Shown: positions 16,253 through 21,469 of the stretch, one piece after another | Position numbering within the stretch: the first letter of the stretch is position 1 | Layout of the letters: each line of letters opens with the position of its first letter | Assembly: GCA_937891825.1 (NCBI GenBank) | Contig: CALAHN010000082.1 | Location: 1 to 62,576 of the forward strand | Reading direction: 5' to 3' | DNA length: 62,576 nucleotides | Origin: an uncultured Alphaproteobacteria bacterium | GTDB lineage: Bacteria > Pseudomonadota > Alphaproteobacteria > Bin95 | The notes under the pieces: generated by a model | Told to the model about the DNA's origin: nothing | The model's input: the letters and a program-made list of their open reading frames with translations, nothing else | The model's database searches: none | Position numbers and translations under genes: made by a program

Positions 16253-17443
16253 TCAGGCGGCGGGCGGCCGCTTTTCGCTTCGCCGCACGGCTTCCGCGAC
16301 CGCCAGCGCGGCGGCCACGTCGCTGGCGTCATTGAAGAGATGGAATGCGAAGCGGAGGGCGCCGCGCCGGGCCGAATGCCGGACGCCCGCTTCGTCCAGC
16401 GCCGCGGAGAGCCGCTGCAACGCCGGATCGCCGACGGCATAGAGATCGCCGTCCGCGATCGCGCCCAGCGTCACGAGTTGGCTTTGGGGCTGGCCGAAGG
16501 GGTCCCGGTTGACCGGCCAGGCGAGCGCGCTGAGGCCCCGCGCCAGATCGTCCGCCAAGTGCATGACATGGGCCTCGATCGCTGCCGGACCGGCGGCGAG
16601 CAGCAGGTCGAGCGACGCGGCCGCAATCGCCGATGAGGCGAAGGCATGGCCCGTTTCGAACCGGCGCGCGCCCACGGTCTCGGCCCAGTCGAAGCCGGAC
16701 GCCGCCGGATGCGCGCCCGGGTCCCGATACCCGGCCGTCGCGACGAAGGTCGCAGCCAACCGATCGGCCCATTTGGGCGCTAGATACAGAAAGCCCTGAC
16801 CGTAGACGCCGAGCAGATATTTGTGGGTCGAGGTCGCCAGCGCGTCGACGCCCATCGCGCCGACATCGGTCTGGAGCACGCCGACGGACTGGGTCGCGTC
16901 GACCAGCAGCAGCGCGTTATGGCGCTTCGCGGCGGCGGCGATCGGGGCGAGGTCGGTGCGGAAGCCCGGCATGAAAGTGACGGTCGAGACCGCGACGGCG
17001 CGCGTCCGGCTATCGACCGCCGCAGCGACGGCGTCGGCGTCGATCGCTTGGCGGTCGGGCGCGATCAGCCGGAGTTCGACGCCCTTCGCCCGGAGCGCCA
17101 GCCAGGGCGTGATGTTCGCCGGATGCTCCAGCACGCCGCAGAGCACGACATTGTCGCCCGGCGCCGCGCCCAATCCGGCGGCGACGATGTTGACGCCCTC
17201 GGTCGCATTCTTGGTGAAGGCGATGTCGGAGACGTCGGCCCGGATCAGCGCCGCGAACCCGGCCCGCGCCCGGTCCAGCCCATCCCGCCAAAGCGCGTTC
17301 GAGCGGGCATTGACCTCCGCATCCGCCAGAAACGCCTGGGCGGCCTGGCTGCTCGACCGCGGCAGCGGCCCGGTCGACGCCGTGTCGAGATAGGTCCAGC
17401 GCGCCGTCGCCGGAAAATTCTGGCGGATCCGGGCCGTATCCAT
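16253..17443 (-). CDS. Class V aminotransferase-fold PLP enzyme (kynureninase/cysteine-desulfurase-like)
   Basis: Fold-type I PLP enzyme of 396 residues; reaction not determined. The PLP lysine is K208 in STHKYLLGVYGQGF, the ring-binding aspartate is D182 in LLLVDATQSVG, and FTKNATEGVNIVA forms the phosphate cup. It resembles the isopenicillin-N-epimerase/kynureninase branch more than IscS, because the desulfurase Cys loop is absent. Last gene of a five-gene operon, 2 bases after a RidA-like gene; PLP enzymes that release enamines often sit beside Rid proteins. Confidence 0.85.
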   Translation of the reverse strand: MDTARIRQNFPATARWTYLDTASTGPLPRSSSQAAQAFLADAEVNARSNALWRDGLDRARAGFAALIRADVSDIAFTKNATEGVNIVAAGLGAAPGDNVVLCGVLEHPANITPWLALRAKGVELRLIAPDRQAIDADAVAAAVDSRTRAVAVSTVTFMPGFRTDLAPIAAAAKRHNALLLVDATQSVGVLQTDVGAMGVDALATSTHKYLLGVYGQGFLYLAPKWADRLAATFVATAGYRDPGAHPAASGFDWAETVGARRFETGHAFASSAIAAASLDLLLAAGPAAIEAHVMHLADDLARGLSALAWPVNRDPFGQPQSQLVTLGAIADGDLYAVGDPALQRLSAALDEAGVRHSARRGALRFAFHLFNDASDVAAALAVAEAVRRSEKRPPAA

Positions 17444-17444
17444 A

Positions 17445-17843
17445 TCAGCCCTTGGAGGCGCCGATATGGGCGACAGCCTCGATCTCGACGGTCAATGCCG
17501 GCTCGGCGAGCTTCGAGATCTCGACCAGGGTCGAGGCCGGGAAGTCGCCGGAGAAGAACTCCGCCCGGGCGCGCCAGACCTGTTCGCGCCGACGGATGTC
17601 GGTCACGAAGATCGTCACCTTCACGACATCGGACATCTGGCCGCCGGCCGCTTCAACGAGGCCCTTGATCTTGCCGAAGATGATCCTGGCCTGCTGGTAA
17701 TCGTCGAGCGGGCCTTCAGCTTCGGGCACGCGGGCGACCTGGCCCGCGATATAGGCGATGCCACCCGCGACGAGGCAGTTCGACCAGGTTTTCGGCTGAG
17801 GCTCCGGCGCCGCCGGCGATGTCGCCCGTTTGATGCCAGTCAT
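17445..17843 (-). CDS. RidA/YjgF family protein
   Basis: Small trimeric protein, 132 residues, of the reactive-intermediate deaminase superfamily. Family features are SGQVAR-like AGQVARVPEAEGPLDDY and VVKVTIFVTDI. In canonical RidA an arginine follows the Pro-Ala step before the last strands; here the segment is FPASTLVEIS with Ser104 there. It may therefore not be an imine deaminase and could act as a Rid-fold enzyme of another subfamily within this operon. Confidence 0.85.
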   Translation of the reverse strand: MTGIKRATSPAAPEPQPKTWSNCLVAGGIAYIAGQVARVPEAEGPLDDYQQARIIFGKIKGLVEAAGGQMSDVVKVTIFVTDIRRREQVWRARAEFFSGDFPASTLVEISKLAEPALTVEIEAVAHIGASKG

Positions 17844-17859
17844 GATGGTTTCTCCCTTG

Positions 17860-18618
17860 TCAGATCACGAGGTTGATGATGGTCGTCTGCTCCAGCGTAT
17901 CGCCGTACCAGGCGGAAATCGCAGCTTCGCGCTCGCCCAGATATTTCGGCTTGCCCCGATCGTCGAGCGCCATCGGCAAATCATGGCCCGGCACGACGAT
18001 GCCGCCGGGCCGGGCGGTCCAGAGGTCCCAGATCATTGCGATCGACGCCCTGCTGATCGCCGCGTCATAGGTCATGTCGGTTTCGCGGCTGATCAATTCG
18101 ACCCGGTTCTTGGCGGCGTCGCCTGTGAAGATCACGTCATGCTCCGGCCCCGCCAGCTTGAAGGCGACGCAGCCGGGCGTGTGGCCGGGGGCCAGATGCA
18201 TGGTGATCCCGGGAAAGACTTCGTCGCCATCCTCGGCGCGCGCCAGGCTCGGCATCAGGTTCAGTTCCCTGACATAGAGCTCCGGCACCGGCGTTTCGCC
18301 CCAGGGCACGGTCAGGGCCCAGTCCATCTCGACCTTCGCGATGACGGTCCTCGCCTTGGGGAACAGCACCCAGTTGAGCGCATGGTCGTAGTGGGAATGG
18401 GTCAACAGCACGTCGGTCACGTCGCCGGGCTTCAGACCACGCTCCGCCAATGCGGCGAGCAACAGCTTCCTGTGGCCGAAGGCGCCGACGTCGATCAATG
18501 CCAACCGGTCGCCGTGGCGGATCAGCACGATGGAGCTCCACCCAAGCGCCCCATGGCAGACGGACTTGCCGGGAAAGCCGGTCACCAGAATGTCGATTGC
18601 GTAGCCGCTGACCTGCAT
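17860..18618 (-). CDS. Metallo-beta-lactamase-fold hydrolase (lactonase-like)
   Basis: Dinuclear-metal hydrolase of 252 residues. The metal motif HSHYDH is at 74-79, with a further His in LAPGHTPG, Asp in FTGDAAKN and His in VVPGHD. General layout is close to N-acyl-homoserine-lactone lactonases, but the context is catabolic, so another lactone or thioester is as likely. It sits between cyclase (8-base gap) and RidA-like genes. Confidence 0.86.
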   Translation of the reverse strand: MQVSGYAIDILVTGFPGKSVCHGALGWSSIVLIRHGDRLALIDVGAFGHRKLLLAALAERGLKPGDVTDVLLTHSHYDHALNWVLFPKARTVIAKVEMDWALTVPWGETPVPELYVRELNLMPSLARAEDGDEVFPGITMHLAPGHTPGCVAFKLAGPEHDVIFTGDAAKNRVELISRETDMTYDAAISRASIAMIWDLWTARPGGIVVPGHDLPMALDDRGKPKYLGEREAAISAWYGDTLEQTTIINLVI

Positions 18619-18625
18619 GCCCGGA

Positions 18626-19300
18626 TCAATCCTCTTCGATGGCGATGATGCGCGACGGCGCGCCGTCGGCGTCCGGCACCTTGAGCGGCAGCGCGTAGAC
18701 CATGCAGCGGGCGCCCTGGATGGCGCTCATGTTGCAGAGATATTCCATCATGATGACGCCGCGCTTCAAGAGGATCATGTGGGTCACGTTTTCCTCGACA
18801 GCCGGCGTGCGGTCGCCGAGCACGAGATTGCGGATGCAATAATCCTGCGGAAAATCGTAGCCGATCGCCTTGATGCCGCGCCCGTAGAGCCATTCGGCCG
18901 CGTCCGCCTCGACCCAGGGCGCGCGCGTCCAGAATTCCGGCGTCTCGATGCTTTCCTGAAGGTCCCAGCGGGCGCGCAGCAGCACGATATCGCCTTCGCG
19001 GATATGCGCCCCCGCCGCCGCTACATCCGCCTCCCGGATCGGCGCATTCGCGCCTACGCCGGAGATATCGACCACGGCGGCCGGGCCGATGGTCTGCTCC
19101 AGCTTCAAACTGTCGGTCGTGTAGCCTTCGGGATCGAAATGCCGGGGCGCGTCCATGTGGGTGAAGGCATGGCAGGAGACGCTGATCCGCGTCGCCTGGG
19201 CGAAGTCGCCCCTGGCGAAGCTTTTGGACAGGGTCTGCTCCGTCGGCCAGCGGAAATGGCCGGCGCGGATCGGCGTCGAAAGGTCGATGATGCGCGGCAT
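18626..19300 (-). CDS. Cyclase family protein (kynurenine formamidase-like)
   Basis: Metal-dependent amide/ester hydrolase of 224 residues. The cyclase motif is H44-x3-H48-x-D50-A-P-x-H54 in SCHAFTHMDAPRHF; the usual Gly before Thr is Phe here. GGGAGG lies at good spacing before the ATG. With a PLP enzyme of the kynureninase type in the same operon, hydrolysis of an N-formyl or lactone group followed by PLP cleavage is an attractive inference, but no tryptophan dioxygenase is present. Confidence 0.86.
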   Translation of the reverse strand: MPRIIDLSTPIRAGHFRWPTEQTLSKSFARGDFAQATRISVSCHAFTHMDAPRHFDPEGYTTDSLKLEQTIGPAAVVDISGVGANAPIREADVAAAGAHIREGDIVLLRARWDLQESIETPEFWTRAPWVEADAAEWLYGRGIKAIGYDFPQDYCIRNLVLGDRTPAVEENVTHMILLKRGVIMMEYLCNMSAIQGARCMVYALPLKVPDADGAPSRIIAIEED

Positions 19301-19327
19301 AGGCGCCTCCCGCTGATAGGCCGGGCG

Positions 19328-20185
19328 CTAGGCGCGGCCGTAGATCACGGCTTCCTGGTCGGGCGGCACATAGAAGAAATCGCCCGGCCGCCAATCATGG
19401 CCGAGGTCGCCGAGGAGGCGGCGCTGGCGCGGCGTGCAGCGGTCGAAATACTGCGTCGGCGTCGCGCCGAAATCATAGGCGCGCAGGAAAAGCTGGCAGT
19501 AATTGTAGAGCAGCGTCTTCCGCGCCTTGCCGGAATGGTTCGGGGCCGGCCCATGCCAGAGGGCGTGCGGAAAGAGGAAACAATCGCCGGCCTTGCCCTT
19601 CAACTGCACGCAGCCGGGGCTATGCGGACCGAGCGGCGGATCGCGGTCGGCTGGAAACGGCCGAAAATGGCTGCCGGGATAGACCGTGAAGGCGCCGGCG
19701 TCGTCGTCCGTCACGTCAGACAGGAGATACAGCGCCTTCATGGCGAGCGGCCGGCTGGTCTCGGTCACGCGAATGCGCCGGAGCGCCTCGCCGCCGTCCG
19801 TATGGGTGTAGCCCGGGAAATCCCGGGTCGACGGGCGCACGATCGCCTGGGACATGCTGAACAGGATATCCGGCCCCATGATATCGACGACGAGATCGAA
19901 GACCTCTGGCCGGTCGATCAGGTCGATGAAGCGCTGGCCGTAGGGCAGCACATCGCGCCGGTCCATGAAAGCTTCCGGGTCGAGGTCCGGGTTCCGCTCG
20001 ACCCACCCGTAATGCCCGCGCGGCAGCATGCCCGACATCGGCTCCCAGCCGGGCCTGGCGCGAAGCGCGTCGATATCGCCCGCGAGGGCTGCGACCTCGT
20101 CCGCGTCGAAGATGCCGGGCAGATGCAGATAGCCGTCGATGGCCCAGCAGTCCTTCTGGTCCTGGGTCAGCTTGCGCATGTTCAT
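19328..20185 (-). CDS. Phytanoyl-CoA dioxygenase (PhyH) family protein
   Basis: Fe(II)/2-oxoglutarate-dependent oxygenase, 285 residues, first gene of the minus-strand operon. Iron ligands are expected from the HxD in YTHTDGG and the distal His in FPHALWHGPAP; SGKARKTLLYNY would supply the 2-oxoglutarate arginine. GGAGG sits 9 bases before the first ATG. Members hydroxylate many small molecules, so the substrate cannot be named. Confidence 0.88.
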   Translation of the reverse strand: MNMRKLTQDQKDCWAIDGYLHLPGIFDADEVAALAGDIDALRARPGWEPMSGMLPRGHYGWVERNPDLDPEAFMDRRDVLPYGQRFIDLIDRPEVFDLVVDIMGPDILFSMSQAIVRPSTRDFPGYTHTDGGEALRRIRVTETSRPLAMKALYLLSDVTDDDAGAFTVYPGSHFRPFPADRDPPLGPHSPGCVQLKGKAGDCFLFPHALWHGPAPNHSGKARKTLLYNYCQLFLRAYDFGATPTQYFDRCTPRQRRLLGDLGHDWRPGDFFYVPPDQEAVIYGRA

Positions 20186-20507
20186 GGGCGCGATCCTCCA
20201 TCTCGGCGCTGTCTATGCCGCACCGTTTCAGCGTTCAGCCTAATCGGCCCGCGCGCGCTGCGCCAGCCCTTGCCGCGCCGTCGATCTGGCGTCGAAAACT
20301 CGCACAAATTCGCCGTTTTTCTAATGTTTCAGGGCTGGCTATTTTTCCGCTTGCAGATTATTCTGAAGTTGCTCATATAGCGTTCGCCCCAAGGGGCTGG
20401 AGCGCAAGACCGGCTGAGCCGTCTCCCCAACCTCCTATCCGAAAGGCGTGTTGCGGCTCGCCGCACACCTCGATTTCGCATTTCAACGGGAGGAGGATCC
20501 ATCCCCG
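20186..20507 (+). promoter_or_regulatory. Divergent intergenic region and structured leader of the AdoMetDC-like gene
   Basis: 322 bases between divergent genes. The part near 20290-20385 is AT-richer than its surroundings and includes TTGCAG (20351-20356) followed 17 bases later by CATATAG, a weak promoter candidate. After it the leader has short helices, best at 20444-20470, where AGGCGTGTTGCGGC folds back on GCCGCACACCT with two bulges. GGGAGGAGG precedes the ATG at 20508. No known riboswitch was recognised. Confidence 0.4.
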
Positions 20508-20885
20508 ATGCCTTACAAGAGAATTCTGGTCGACGGCGTCAAGCATTACGGCAAGCACGTTATTCTCACCGCAGGCGGCTGTAACCCGGCCCTGCTGGAA
20601 AAGTCGAAGATCGCCGAGTTCTGCAAGGACATGGTCGTTCGCATCGACATGGTTCCCTTTGGCGAGCCCTTCGTCGAACGCTTTGGCGGCGGCGACGAGG
20701 TCGGCATCTCGGCCGTGCAGCTCATCCAGACGAGCGCCATCACGATTCACACCAATGACGAAGCGCGCGACATGTATCTCGACGTGTTCTCGTGCAAGGA
20801 CTTCGACGCCGCGACCGTGATCAAGACGGTCGAGGACTGGTTCTCCCCGAAGTCCATCGTCAGCGAAACGCTGCTGCGCAAGTGA
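20508..20885 (+). CDS. S-adenosylmethionine decarboxylase-like (SpeH-fold) protein
   Basis: 125-residue protein of the bacterial AdoMetDC size and fold. Enzymes of this family self-cleave at a Ser to make a pyruvoyl group. Here the segment is T75-S76-A77 followed by ITIHT, where classical SpeH has Glu-Ser-His. The processing His (H81) and the catalytic Cys (C96 in DVFSCKDF) are kept. It may thus process but use a different substrate, or be non-catalytic; some SpeH homologues are known to have become arginine or ornithine decarboxylases. No spermidine synthase is nearby. The start at MPYKRILVDG follows GGGAGGAGG. Its stop overlaps the next gene's GTG. Confidence 0.8.
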   Translation: MPYKRILVDGVKHYGKHVILTAGGCNPALLEKSKIAEFCKDMVVRIDMVPFGEPFVERFGGGDEVGISAVQLIQTSAITIHTNDEARDMYLDVFSCKDFDAATVIKTVEDWFSPKSIVSETLLRK

Positions 20886-21382
20886 CGCGATTCTATCCGG
20901 AGGCCGTGCCCTCCTTTGAGCACGAACCAACCCGTGAGCGTTTCGACATCAAGGCCATCGGCGACAATGTCGGCGAAGGCGTCGTCGCGCTCACGCCCTT
21001 CTCCCCCGGCGATATCGTGTTCCGCTTCACCGGATTTTACAGCGCGGAGATAACGCTGTTCACGCTCCAGGTGGAGCCCGGCCTCTATCTGCACGACCCA
21101 TTCTTCATGGGCAAGATCCTGCATCGGTGCGACGCGAACTGCGACGTCGATATGGCGACGCGCACGTTTACGGCGCGGCTGCCGATTGCGCCGGGCGACT
21201 GGGTCACCATGAACTACGAGCAAACGGAAGACGAACTGTTCCGGCCATTCACCTGCGTTTGCGGCCCGGTCAAGTGCGAAGGCTTTACCGCGGAACGCCA
21301 GATCCGCGGCCGCCGCTTCCTGCAGGAAAACGCCGAACCCGGCGAGCGCGTGGAGCCTATGCGCCGCCGTCGCACCCGCTGA
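20882..21382 (+). CDS. SET-domain protein (protein-lysine methyltransferase-like)
   Basis: 166-residue protein with GTG start overlapping the previous stop as GTGA. It has the SET cofactor loop NVGEGVVA (29-36), the pseudoknot-like H81-R-C-D-A-N86-C segment, Y112 in TMNYEQ as likely catalytic Tyr, and a post-SET zinc motif C125-x-C127-x4-C132. These are the hallmarks of SAM-dependent lysine methyltransferases, though the usual NHS is HRC here. A basic tail follows. Tight coupling with an AdoMetDC-like protein suggests a shared substrate, either the protein itself or SAM. Confidence 0.82.
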   Translation: MTRFYPEAVPSFEHEPTRERFDIKAIGDNVGEGVVALTPFSPGDIVFRFTGFYSAEITLFTLQVEPGLYLHDPFFMGKILHRCDANCDVDMATRTFTARLPIAPGDWVTMNYEQTEDELFRPFTCVCGPVKCEGFTAERQIRGRRFLQENAEPGERVEPMRRRRTR

Positions 21383-21423
21383 CGCCGAGCCCTGGCGACC
21401 GCCAGGGAGCCGGTCCCGACAGA

Positions 21424-21457
21424 ACGCCCTGGAAGCGAAAGCTTCCGGGGCGTTTTT
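21424..21457 (+). terminator. Rho-independent terminator of the AdoMetDC-SET bicistron
   Basis: ACGCCCTGGAAGC (21424-21436) pairs with GCTTCCGGGGCGT (21441-21453) through 13 pairs, one of them G-U, around a GAAA tetraloop, and a run of five Ts ends at 21457. It lies 42 bases after the SET stop and in the gap before the convergent isomerase. Confidence 0.9.
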
Positions 21458-21469
21458 CATTGCGCGCGC

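What the first reader, a model, noticed from the sequence alone, without database searches (positions are those of the whole stretch)
20508..21457. Coupled AdoMet-decarboxylase-like and SET-domain genes as a self-contained bicistron
Seen: a SpeH-size protein with Thr-Ser-Ala in place of the Glu-Ser-His processing site but with the His and Cys of the active centre kept, overlapping by GTGA a SET-domain gene with cofactor loop, Tyr and post-SET cysteines, closed by a strong terminator. Known: SpeH makes decarboxylated SAM for spermidine; some homologues turned into other pyruvoyl decarboxylases; SET proteins methylate lysine with SAM. Inference: the pair may be a new SAM-linked module, for example methylation of the decarboxylase by its partner, or sequential decarboxylation and methylation of one substrate. 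No spermidine synthase is near.
Basis: partly seen in the sequence, partly recalled or inferred. Interest (0 to 1): 0.75.

Follow-up and report, generated by a model that had tools for sequence, protein, structure and literature searches.

The report
Two-gene sulfonium-amine module: decarboxylase plus SET enzyme
Two overlapping bacterial genes, also carried by phages, probably make a sulfur-based charged amine (the precursor of the marine compound DMSP) from methionine, using a relative of the polyamine enzyme SAM decarboxylase in a job previously known only for an unrelated vitamin-B6 enzyme.

Summary
The bicistron is real: a 125-aa AdoMet_dc-fold protein (20508-20885) overlaps by GTGA a 166-aa SET protein (20882-21382), ended by a strong hairpin terminator. 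The pair is conserved: I found 21 loci with both genes touching, in four bacterial phyla and in phage contigs, in both gene orders. The SET protein is not a typical lysine methyltransferase. Its only PDB sequence relative and best structural match is BurB, the SET enzyme that S-methylates free methionine to S-methylmethionine (SMM) for DMSP synthesis. In 40 of 80 other BurB-like loci a BurI-family PLP decarboxylase sits beside the SET gene; BurI is the enzyme that consumes SMM. The SpeH-like gene occupies that place where BurI is missing. Its Thr-Ser site is not odd: it marks the neofunctionalised branch that includes pyruvoyl ornithine decarboxylases. The SET-linked proteins have their own fingerprint (TS[AQS]...H[TS]ND, 24/24), unlike SAM, arginine or ornithine decarboxylases. 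Best reading: methionine -> SMM (SET) -> 3-dimethylsulfoniopropylamine (pyruvoyl decarboxylase), a DMSP-type module with a replaced decarboxylase. The substrates are inferred; no assay exists.

The parts
20488..20496 (+). Shine-Dalgarno GGGAGGAGG for the decarboxylase gene
   Evidence: read directly
20508..20885 (+). SpeH/AdoMet_dc-fold pyruvoyl decarboxylase homologue, proposed S-methylmethionine decarboxylase (125 aa)
   Evidence: Pfam AdoMet_dc 63.5 bits; below NCBIfam equivalog cut-off for AdoMetDC (43 vs 75.65 bits); model pLDDT 94.8, best PDB hits T. maritima AdoMetDC TM 0.80-0.81; start codon supported by the conserved N-terminus
20730..20738 (+). Codons of T75-S76-A77; S76 is the predicted pyruvoyl-forming serine
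   Evidence: aligned to Ser63 of T. maritima AdoMetDC by family alignment; S invariant, T in 24/24 SET-linked members
20748..20759 (+). Codons of H81-T82-N83-D84, the fingerprint HTND of the SET-linked decarboxylases
   Evidence: H[TS]ND in 24/24 SET-linked, H[TS]WP in canonical AdoMetDC, HF in ODC-type
20882..20885 (+). GTGA overlap of start (GTG) and stop (TGA): likely translational coupling
20882..21382 (+). BurB-like SET-domain methyltransferase, proposed methionine S-methyltransferase (166 aa)
   Evidence: phmmer vs PDB: only BurB 9l4t/9l4v, E=1.1e-19; Foldseek: 9l4v TM 0.75, rmsd 1.9; trees
21215..21217 (+). Codon of Tyr112, equivalent of BurB Tyr124 between SMM and SAM
   Evidence: invariant in 31 BurB-like SETs; role in BurB from PMC12542666
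21421..21458 (+). Intrinsic terminator hairpin with U-tract closing the operon
   Evidence: -30.7 kcal/mol, z -6.0

Best explanation
The pair is a minimal two-step pathway. The SET protein transfers a methyl group from SAM to the sulfur of free methionine, giving S-methylmethionine (SMM), as its relative BurB does. The SpeH-like protein cleaves itself at Ser76 to make a pyruvoyl cofactor and decarboxylates SMM to 3-dimethylsulfoniopropylamine (DMSP-amine). Housekeeping aminotransferases or oxidases and aldehyde dehydrogenases can then turn the amine into DMSP, or the dicationic amine may itself be the product. Shown here by sequence: conserved pairing in both gene orders, BurB kinship and fold, retention of the pyruvoyl machinery, a class-specific decarboxylase fingerprint, and replacement of the BurI-type decarboxylase. 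Inferred: both substrates and the fate of the amine.
For: SET: only PDB sequence relative is BurB; best fold match is the BurB-SMM-SAM complex, TM 0.75 vs at most 0.59 for lysine SETs in the listed hits; BurB's site landmarks H93, Y124, T127-E128 and R133 are H81, Y112, T115-E116 and R121 here; BurB makes SMM (PMC12542666, PMC7496086). Decarboxylase step: 40 of 80 BurB-like SET loci have a PLP decarboxylase beside the SET gene, abutting downstream in 38. It is orthologous (52% id, ~440 bits) to the one ~18 kb from burB in the B. ubonensis and B. multivorans bur clusters; loss of burI accumulates SMM (PMC7496086). Seven SpeH-pair genomes tested have no such gene (best hit 160 bits or less), and in the window's genome the best hit is LysA. 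No locus has both. Pairing: 21 loci with both genes touching, from Pseudomonadota, Spirochaetota, Omnitrophota, Bacillota and phages. Rhizobial phage-plasmid/viral SETs on the BurB side of the tree (100/97) are also paired with this SpeH type, in reverse order, so the association arose at least twice. SpeH: Ser76, Ser68, His81 and Cys96 kept; all 24 SET-linked members have TS[AQS]/H[TS]ND. They lack the W-P of AdoMetDC and the Phe diagnostic of ODC, but keep Gln, Thr and Tyr of the ODC branch (PMC10407285). The genome already has PLP ODC, SpeD and SpeE.
Against: No biochemical data on either protein. The window's SET clade sits on a long stem apart from BurB (36% id), and several BurB side chains at the SAM site differ (R42, H72, H138; also S88->M), so a shifted substrate is possible. 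Sinorhizobium phage phiN3 SpeD, 35% identical and also without W-P, is a bona fide AdoMetDC (PMC9992855), so SAM is not excluded. About half of the other BurB-like SETs have no recognisable decarboxylase next door. No aminotransferase or dehydrogenase is evidently linked in the window (an aldehyde dehydrogenase-like gene lies near the pair in G006). No SAM or methionine riboswitch was found. Why phages would carry a DMSP-type module is unclear.
Confidence: 0.6

Rival explanations
1. Same product, other order: the SpeH-like enzyme decarboxylates methionine to 3-methylthiopropylamine, and the SET enzyme then S-methylates the amine.
For: Decarboxylase gene comes first in most loci; a methionine decarboxylation route to DMSP is known in a dinoflagellate (PMC12542666, PMC9135737).
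Against: BurB methylates free Met and rejected the two other thioethers tested (PMC12542666); gene order is reversed in L187/L193; a cationic side chain suits an enzyme from the SAM/ornithine branch better than neutral Met (inference).
Confidence: 0.1
2. The SpeH-like enzyme is an ordinary SAM or ornithine decarboxylase for polyamines and the SET protein acts on an unrelated or regulatory target.
For: Nearest phage relative phiN3 is a real AdoMetDC (PMC9992855); the sister branch holds ornithine decarboxylases (PMC10407285).
Against: No speE or polyamine gene is seen next to the pairs inspected; own genome already has ODC, SpeD and SpeE; fingerprint differs from all three known specificities; the SET link is exclusive to this subclade: 77 viral sequences outside it have no SET.
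Confidence: 0.13
3. The pair methylates and decarboxylates another cationic amino acid (for example ornithine or lysine side-chain N-methylation followed by decarboxylation).
For: Spirochaetes carry a separate fusion of a lysine-type SET with an ODC-type AdoMet_dc domain, so SET and this decarboxylase fold met independently.
Against: The window's SET is BurB-type, not lysine-type (LHxC instead of NHxC; TED motif).
Confidence: 0.09
4. The SET protein methylates its decarboxylase partner.
For: Overlapping genes and constant pairing.
Against: BurB fold and small-molecule pocket kinship; BurB homologues pair instead with an unrelated PLP decarboxylase, which shared protein targeting does not explain.
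Confidence: 0.03

Closest known systems
BurB-BurI DMSP branch of the bur (malleicyprol) cluster, Burkholderia thailandensis (PMC7496086, PMC12542666)
   Same: BurB-like SET methyltransferase plus an amino-acid decarboxylase; same proposed intermediates Met -> SMM -> DMSP-amine
   Different: BurI is a PLP enzyme of the diaminopimelate decarboxylase type; here the decarboxylase is a pyruvoyl AdoMetDC-fold protein. No NRPS-PKS, aminotransferase or dehydrogenase is linked; the module is free-standing and also phage-borne
MSMT/SMMDC of Streptomyces mobaraensis (described in PMC12542666 as homologous to BurB/BurI)
   Same: Met methylation route to DMSP
   Different: PLP decarboxylase in a larger cluster
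SpeDC/SpeDA neofunctionalised AdoMetDC homologues (PMC10407285, PMC9992855)
   Same: Same fold and the Gln/Thr/Tyr marks and Thr-Ser site of the ODC branch; spread by horizontal transfer and by phages
   Different: Linked to a SET gene, not to polyamine genes; diagnostic Phe replaced by Thr/Ser, motif H[TS]ND; substrate proposed to be SMM
Canonical SpeH/SpeD class 1b AdoMet decarboxylase (T. maritima 1vr7/1tlu)
   Same: Fold (TM 0.8) and catalytic Ser/His/Cys
   Different: 21-22% identity, ESH -> TSA, WPE -> NDE; 43 bits against an equivalog cut-off of 75.65
SET-domain protein-lysine methyltransferases
   Same: SET fold, Tyr, post-SET Cys
   Different: LHxC instead of NHxC, TED motif; structure closer to BurB by a wide margin

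Membership tests
BurB-type methionine S-methyltransferases (SET) | Sequence and fold closest to BurB rather than to lysine SETs | tested here: met
BurB-type methionine S-methyltransferases (SET) | Active-site Tyr and SAM-contact His/Arg (BurB Y124, H93, R133) | tested here: met
   Y112, H81, R121; H138, H72 and R42 of BurB not kept
BurB-type methionine S-methyltransferases (SET) | Converts Met + SAM to SMM | not testable with these tools
   needs enzyme assay
Bona fide AdoMet decarboxylase (SpeH/SpeD class 1b) | Passes the curated equivalog threshold | tested here: not met
   43 vs 75.65 bits
Bona fide AdoMet decarboxylase (SpeH/SpeD class 1b) | Glu-Ser-His site and the conserved Pro after His-Thr-Trp | tested here: not met
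   TSA and HTND; but phiN3 AdoMetDC also lacks the W-P
Pyruvoyl (AdoMetDC-fold) decarboxylases in general | Pyruvoyl Ser, processing/catalytic His and Cys, fold | tested here: met
   S76, S68, H81, C96 kept in all SET-linked members; TM 0.80-0.81 to T. maritima AdoMetDC
SpeDC ornithine decarboxylase | Four diagnostic residues Gln, Thr, Phe, Tyr (Li et al. 2023) | tested here: not met
   Gln71, Thr75, Tyr90 present; Phe is Thr82; position mapping inferred from my alignment because the figure is not held
BurI (PLP SMM decarboxylase) | Orn/DAP/Arg PLP-decarboxylase fold | tested here: not met
   non-homologous; functional replacement proposed from genomic context
Protein-lysine SET methyltransferase | NHxC motif and kinship with lysine SETs | tested here: not met
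   LHRC

The most novel reading that the evidence does not exclude
The module makes 3-dimethylsulfoniopropylamine as an end product: a dication that resembles a diamine and is decarboxylated SAM without the adenosine. Cells and phages would use it as a sulfonium polyamine substitute, or as an adenosine-free aminopropyl donor, rather than as a step to DMSP.
Probability: 0.15. Interest if true: 0.88.

Novelty: new variant of a known kind. Interest (0 to 1): 0.68.

Why it matters
If true, a further use of the AdoMetDC fold beyond SAM and basic amino acids is found (SMM), with a clear sequence fingerprint, and two unrelated decarboxylase folds have converged on the same partner. It would place SMM/DMSP-amine synthesis in phyla and phages where it has not been reported in the papers I could search; a 2026 review still says BurB was reported only from B. 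thailandensis (PMC13360808). It also gives a two-gene, cheaply testable system and a way to find producers in genomes.

Tried and rejected
(1) Loss of Trp/Pro/Glu of canonical AdoMetDC as proof of non-SAM activity: rejected as decisive, because phiN3 AdoMetDC also lacks them. (2) TSA as a dead processing site: rejected. (3) Riboswitch upstream: none in Rfam for the window or 14 paired loci. (4) Conserved downstream enzymes: flanks differ from lineage to lineage; the GNAT/CN-hydrolase gene next to SET in G002 is in the opposite orientation in G006 and absent in the window, so not part of the module. (5) First alignment A1 used wrong strands for two loci and was redone. (6) BurB-like SETs in isolated phages (INPHARED): none for the rhizobial SET query. 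(8) Chance neighbours: excluded by taxonomic spread and order reversal.

Full report
WHAT IS THERE. The window holds a tight bicistron on the + strand. ORF 1, 20508-20885, is a 125-residue AdoMet_dc-fold protein; ORF 2, 20882-21382, is a 166-residue SET protein that starts with a GTG inside the GTGA overlap. A GGGAGGAGG Shine-Dalgarno stands 11 bases before the ATG, and a hairpin at about 21421-21458 ending in a U-tract closes the unit (-30.7 kcal/mol, z = -6). ORF 1 scores 63.5 bits to Pfam AdoMet_dc but only 43 bits to the AdoMetDC equivalog model, whose cut-off is 75.65. ORF 2 scores below the Pfam SET cut-off yet is plainly a SET protein by structure.

WHAT THE SET PROTEIN IS. Against all PDB sequences the SET protein finds one protein only, BurB, at E = 1.1e-19. 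An AlphaFold model built on 31 relatives (mean pLDDT 82.6; most of residues 1-120 above 90, C-terminal part weak) matches the BurB-SMM-SAM complex 9l4v with TM 0.75 and 1.9 A rmsd; lysine SETs in the listed hits reach 0.59. BurB is a SET enzyme that methylates free methionine to S-methylmethionine (PMC12542666, PMC7496086). Landmarks shared with BurB are DPxFxGxxLHxCxxN, the TED motif, Tyr112 (BurB Tyr124), His81 (His93) and Arg121 (Arg133). Differences: S88 of BurB is Met76; H72, R42 and H138 are not kept. BurB binds methionine through main-chain atoms (PMC12542666), so these do not rule methionine in or out.

WHAT THE PARTNER IS. The AdoMet_dc model is confident (pLDDT 94.8) and matches T. 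maritima AdoMetDC at TM 0.80-0.81. The pyruvoyl Ser76, Ser68, His81 and Cys96 are kept. In Omnitrophota the second AdoMet_dc gene of speD1-speE-speD2 clusters has Thr-Ser too, which is the kind of context in which Li et al. (PMC10407285) proved pyruvoyl ornithine decarboxylases. In trees, the Thr-Ser proteins split from canonical ESH proteins (100/99; when added, the arginine decarboxylase of phage HTVC201P falls on the canonical side). Within them the SET-linked proteins form one group (99/99; 77/82 when phage members and phiN3 are added). Their fingerprint is constant in 24 of 24: Gln71, Thr75-Ser76-[AQS]77, His81-[TS]82-Asn83-Asp84, Tyr90. Canonical enzymes have ESH and H[TS]WP; the ODC-type ones have TS and HF. 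Of the four residues that Li et al. call diagnostic for ODC (Gln, Thr, Phe, Tyr), the SET-linked family keeps three and replaces Phe by Thr/Ser; it lacks the proline of AdoMetDC. (I mapped these four positions from my alignment, as the figure itself is not held.) So it fits none of the known specificities.

CONSERVED PAIRING. A scan of 84,980 genomes with the SET profile gave 80 BurB-like loci. The AdoMet_dc gene abuts the SET gene in an alphaproteobacterium, a Brevinematales spirochaete, an Omnitrophota MAG and Paenibacillus contaminans. Genome searches added a second alphaproteobacterial genus and nine more spirochaete genomes. Viral contigs L191, L192, L194 and L196 carry the pair in the same order; in L191, L192 and L196 it lies beside ParB-like, PAPS-reductase-like and terminase-like genes. 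Viral contig L193 and a Rhizobium bangladeshense plasmid with phage-like genes (L187) carry it in the reverse order. In all, 21 loci have both genes touching or nearly so. The exceptions within the clade are a second copy in G722, phage contig L190/L195, and Verrucomicrobia G400, where both genes exist on different contigs. Outside the clade, 77 viral relatives (131 bits or less to the profile, against 134-240 inside) have no SET neighbour on the DNA held. Flanking genes differ from lineage to lineage, so the pair moves as a unit.

THE KEY ARGUMENT. In 40 of the 80 BurB-like SET loci, a PLP decarboxylase of the Orn/DAP/Arg family lies beside the SET gene; 38 of the 40 are directly downstream, touching or overlapping. 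Its orthologue (52% identity, about 440 bits) lies about 18 kb from burB in the bur clusters of B. ubonensis and B. multivorans, as expected of BurI, whose loss makes cells accumulate SMM (PMC7496086) and which is DAPDC-like (PMC11464771). Seven genomes with the SpeH-type gene have no such gene; their best hits are at most 160 bits, and in the window's own genome the best hit is LysA. No locus has both. The rhizobial phage SETs lie on the BurB side of the SET tree (100/97) but are paired with the SpeH type, so the pairing arose at least twice. The simplest reading is non-orthologous displacement: the SpeH-like protein does BurI's job on the SET enzyme's product. Chemistry fits (inference): SMM is a sulfonium amino acid like SAM, with a side-chain charge placed much as in ornithine, the substrates of the two neighbouring branches.

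MECHANISM, MARKED BY CERTAINTY. Shown: coupled genes, conserved pairing, kinship, kept catalytic residues, exclusive fingerprint. Inferred: Met + SAM -> SMM + SAH by the SET protein (about 0.75); Ser76 self-cleavage and SMM -> 3-dimethylsulfoniopropylamine + CO2 by the SpeH-like protein (about 0.65). Unknown: the fate of the amine. In B. thailandensis, burD and burE mutants still make the end product, so the later steps may be done by housekeeping enzymes (PMC7496086); a two-gene unit could therefore suffice for DMSP. The genome has its own PLP decarboxylase closest to lysine/ornithine decarboxylases and speD-speE, so the pair is not needed for polyamines.

LIMITS. No assay exists. The phiN3 AdoMetDC, 35% identical, warns that SAM activity cannot be excluded from sequence alone (PMC9992855). 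The SET clade is on a long branch. Half of the other BurB-like SETs have no visible partner. No riboswitch or pathway gene in the window supports the sulfur assignment directly.

NOVELTY. I found no paper linking SET proteins and AdoMetDC homologues and none on a pyruvoyl SMM decarboxylase (one search returned two papers; the one I read concerns plant PLP-type enzymes, and the other is on tomato volatiles). A 2026 review lists BurB from B. thailandensis only (PMC13360808). The library holds open-access papers only. I rate it a new variant of the BurB-BurI type of module, not a new category.

Noticed in passing
L164-L168, L171-L173 (Spirochaetota genomes): Single-ORF fusion of a lysine-type SET domain (NHSC) to an ODC-type AdoMet_dc domain, preceded by a canonical speD; an independent meeting of the two folds, function unknown.
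   Followed up: partly
40 loci between L038 and L100, listed: BurB-like SET gene beside a BurI-family PLP decarboxylase in Desulfobulbaceae, Phenylobacterium, Sphingopyxis, Thiorhodococcus, Myxococcales and others, far beyond Burkholderia; some (L059, L069, L088) also have a class III-type aminotransferase nearby.
   Followed up: partly
L191:4400-7964, L192, L196:3409-6955: Phage gene block ParB-like, decarboxylase, SET (with a C-terminal extension), PAPS-reductase/DUF3440, ParB-like, terminase; L187/L193 have an Asn-synthase-like gene upstream. Might mean the amine is attached to something in phages.
   Followed up: partly
L184:9584-11140 (G002), L186:396-1994 (G006): GNAT-carbon-nitrogen hydrolase fusion next to the SET gene in two relatives, in different orientations; absent next to the window pair.
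   Followed up: partly
L175:5330-6379 (G722 second copy): SET-linked-type decarboxylase without SET, directly downstream of what reads like a class I methyltransferase gene; could be another methyltransferase replacement or chance.
   Followed up: no
L029:8675-9376: PNP_UDP (nucleoside phosphorylase-like) gene just upstream of the pair in Omnitrophota, possibly for SAH or MTA disposal.
   Followed up: no
L012:1498-1872 (G010, same family as the window genome): Another divergent AdoMet_dc protein (LTSSIVIHT) without SET; unknown specificity.
   Followed up: no
window 16253-20185 (- strand): Catabolic-looking block next to the pair: class V aminotransferase, a small RidA-like ORF (from reading), MBL-fold hydrolase, putative cyclase, PhyH dioxygenase.
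   Followed up: no
L183:103-573 (Verrucomicrobia G400): HTH protein with a possible SET-like C-terminal part next to the decarboxylase gene (reading only).
   Followed up: no
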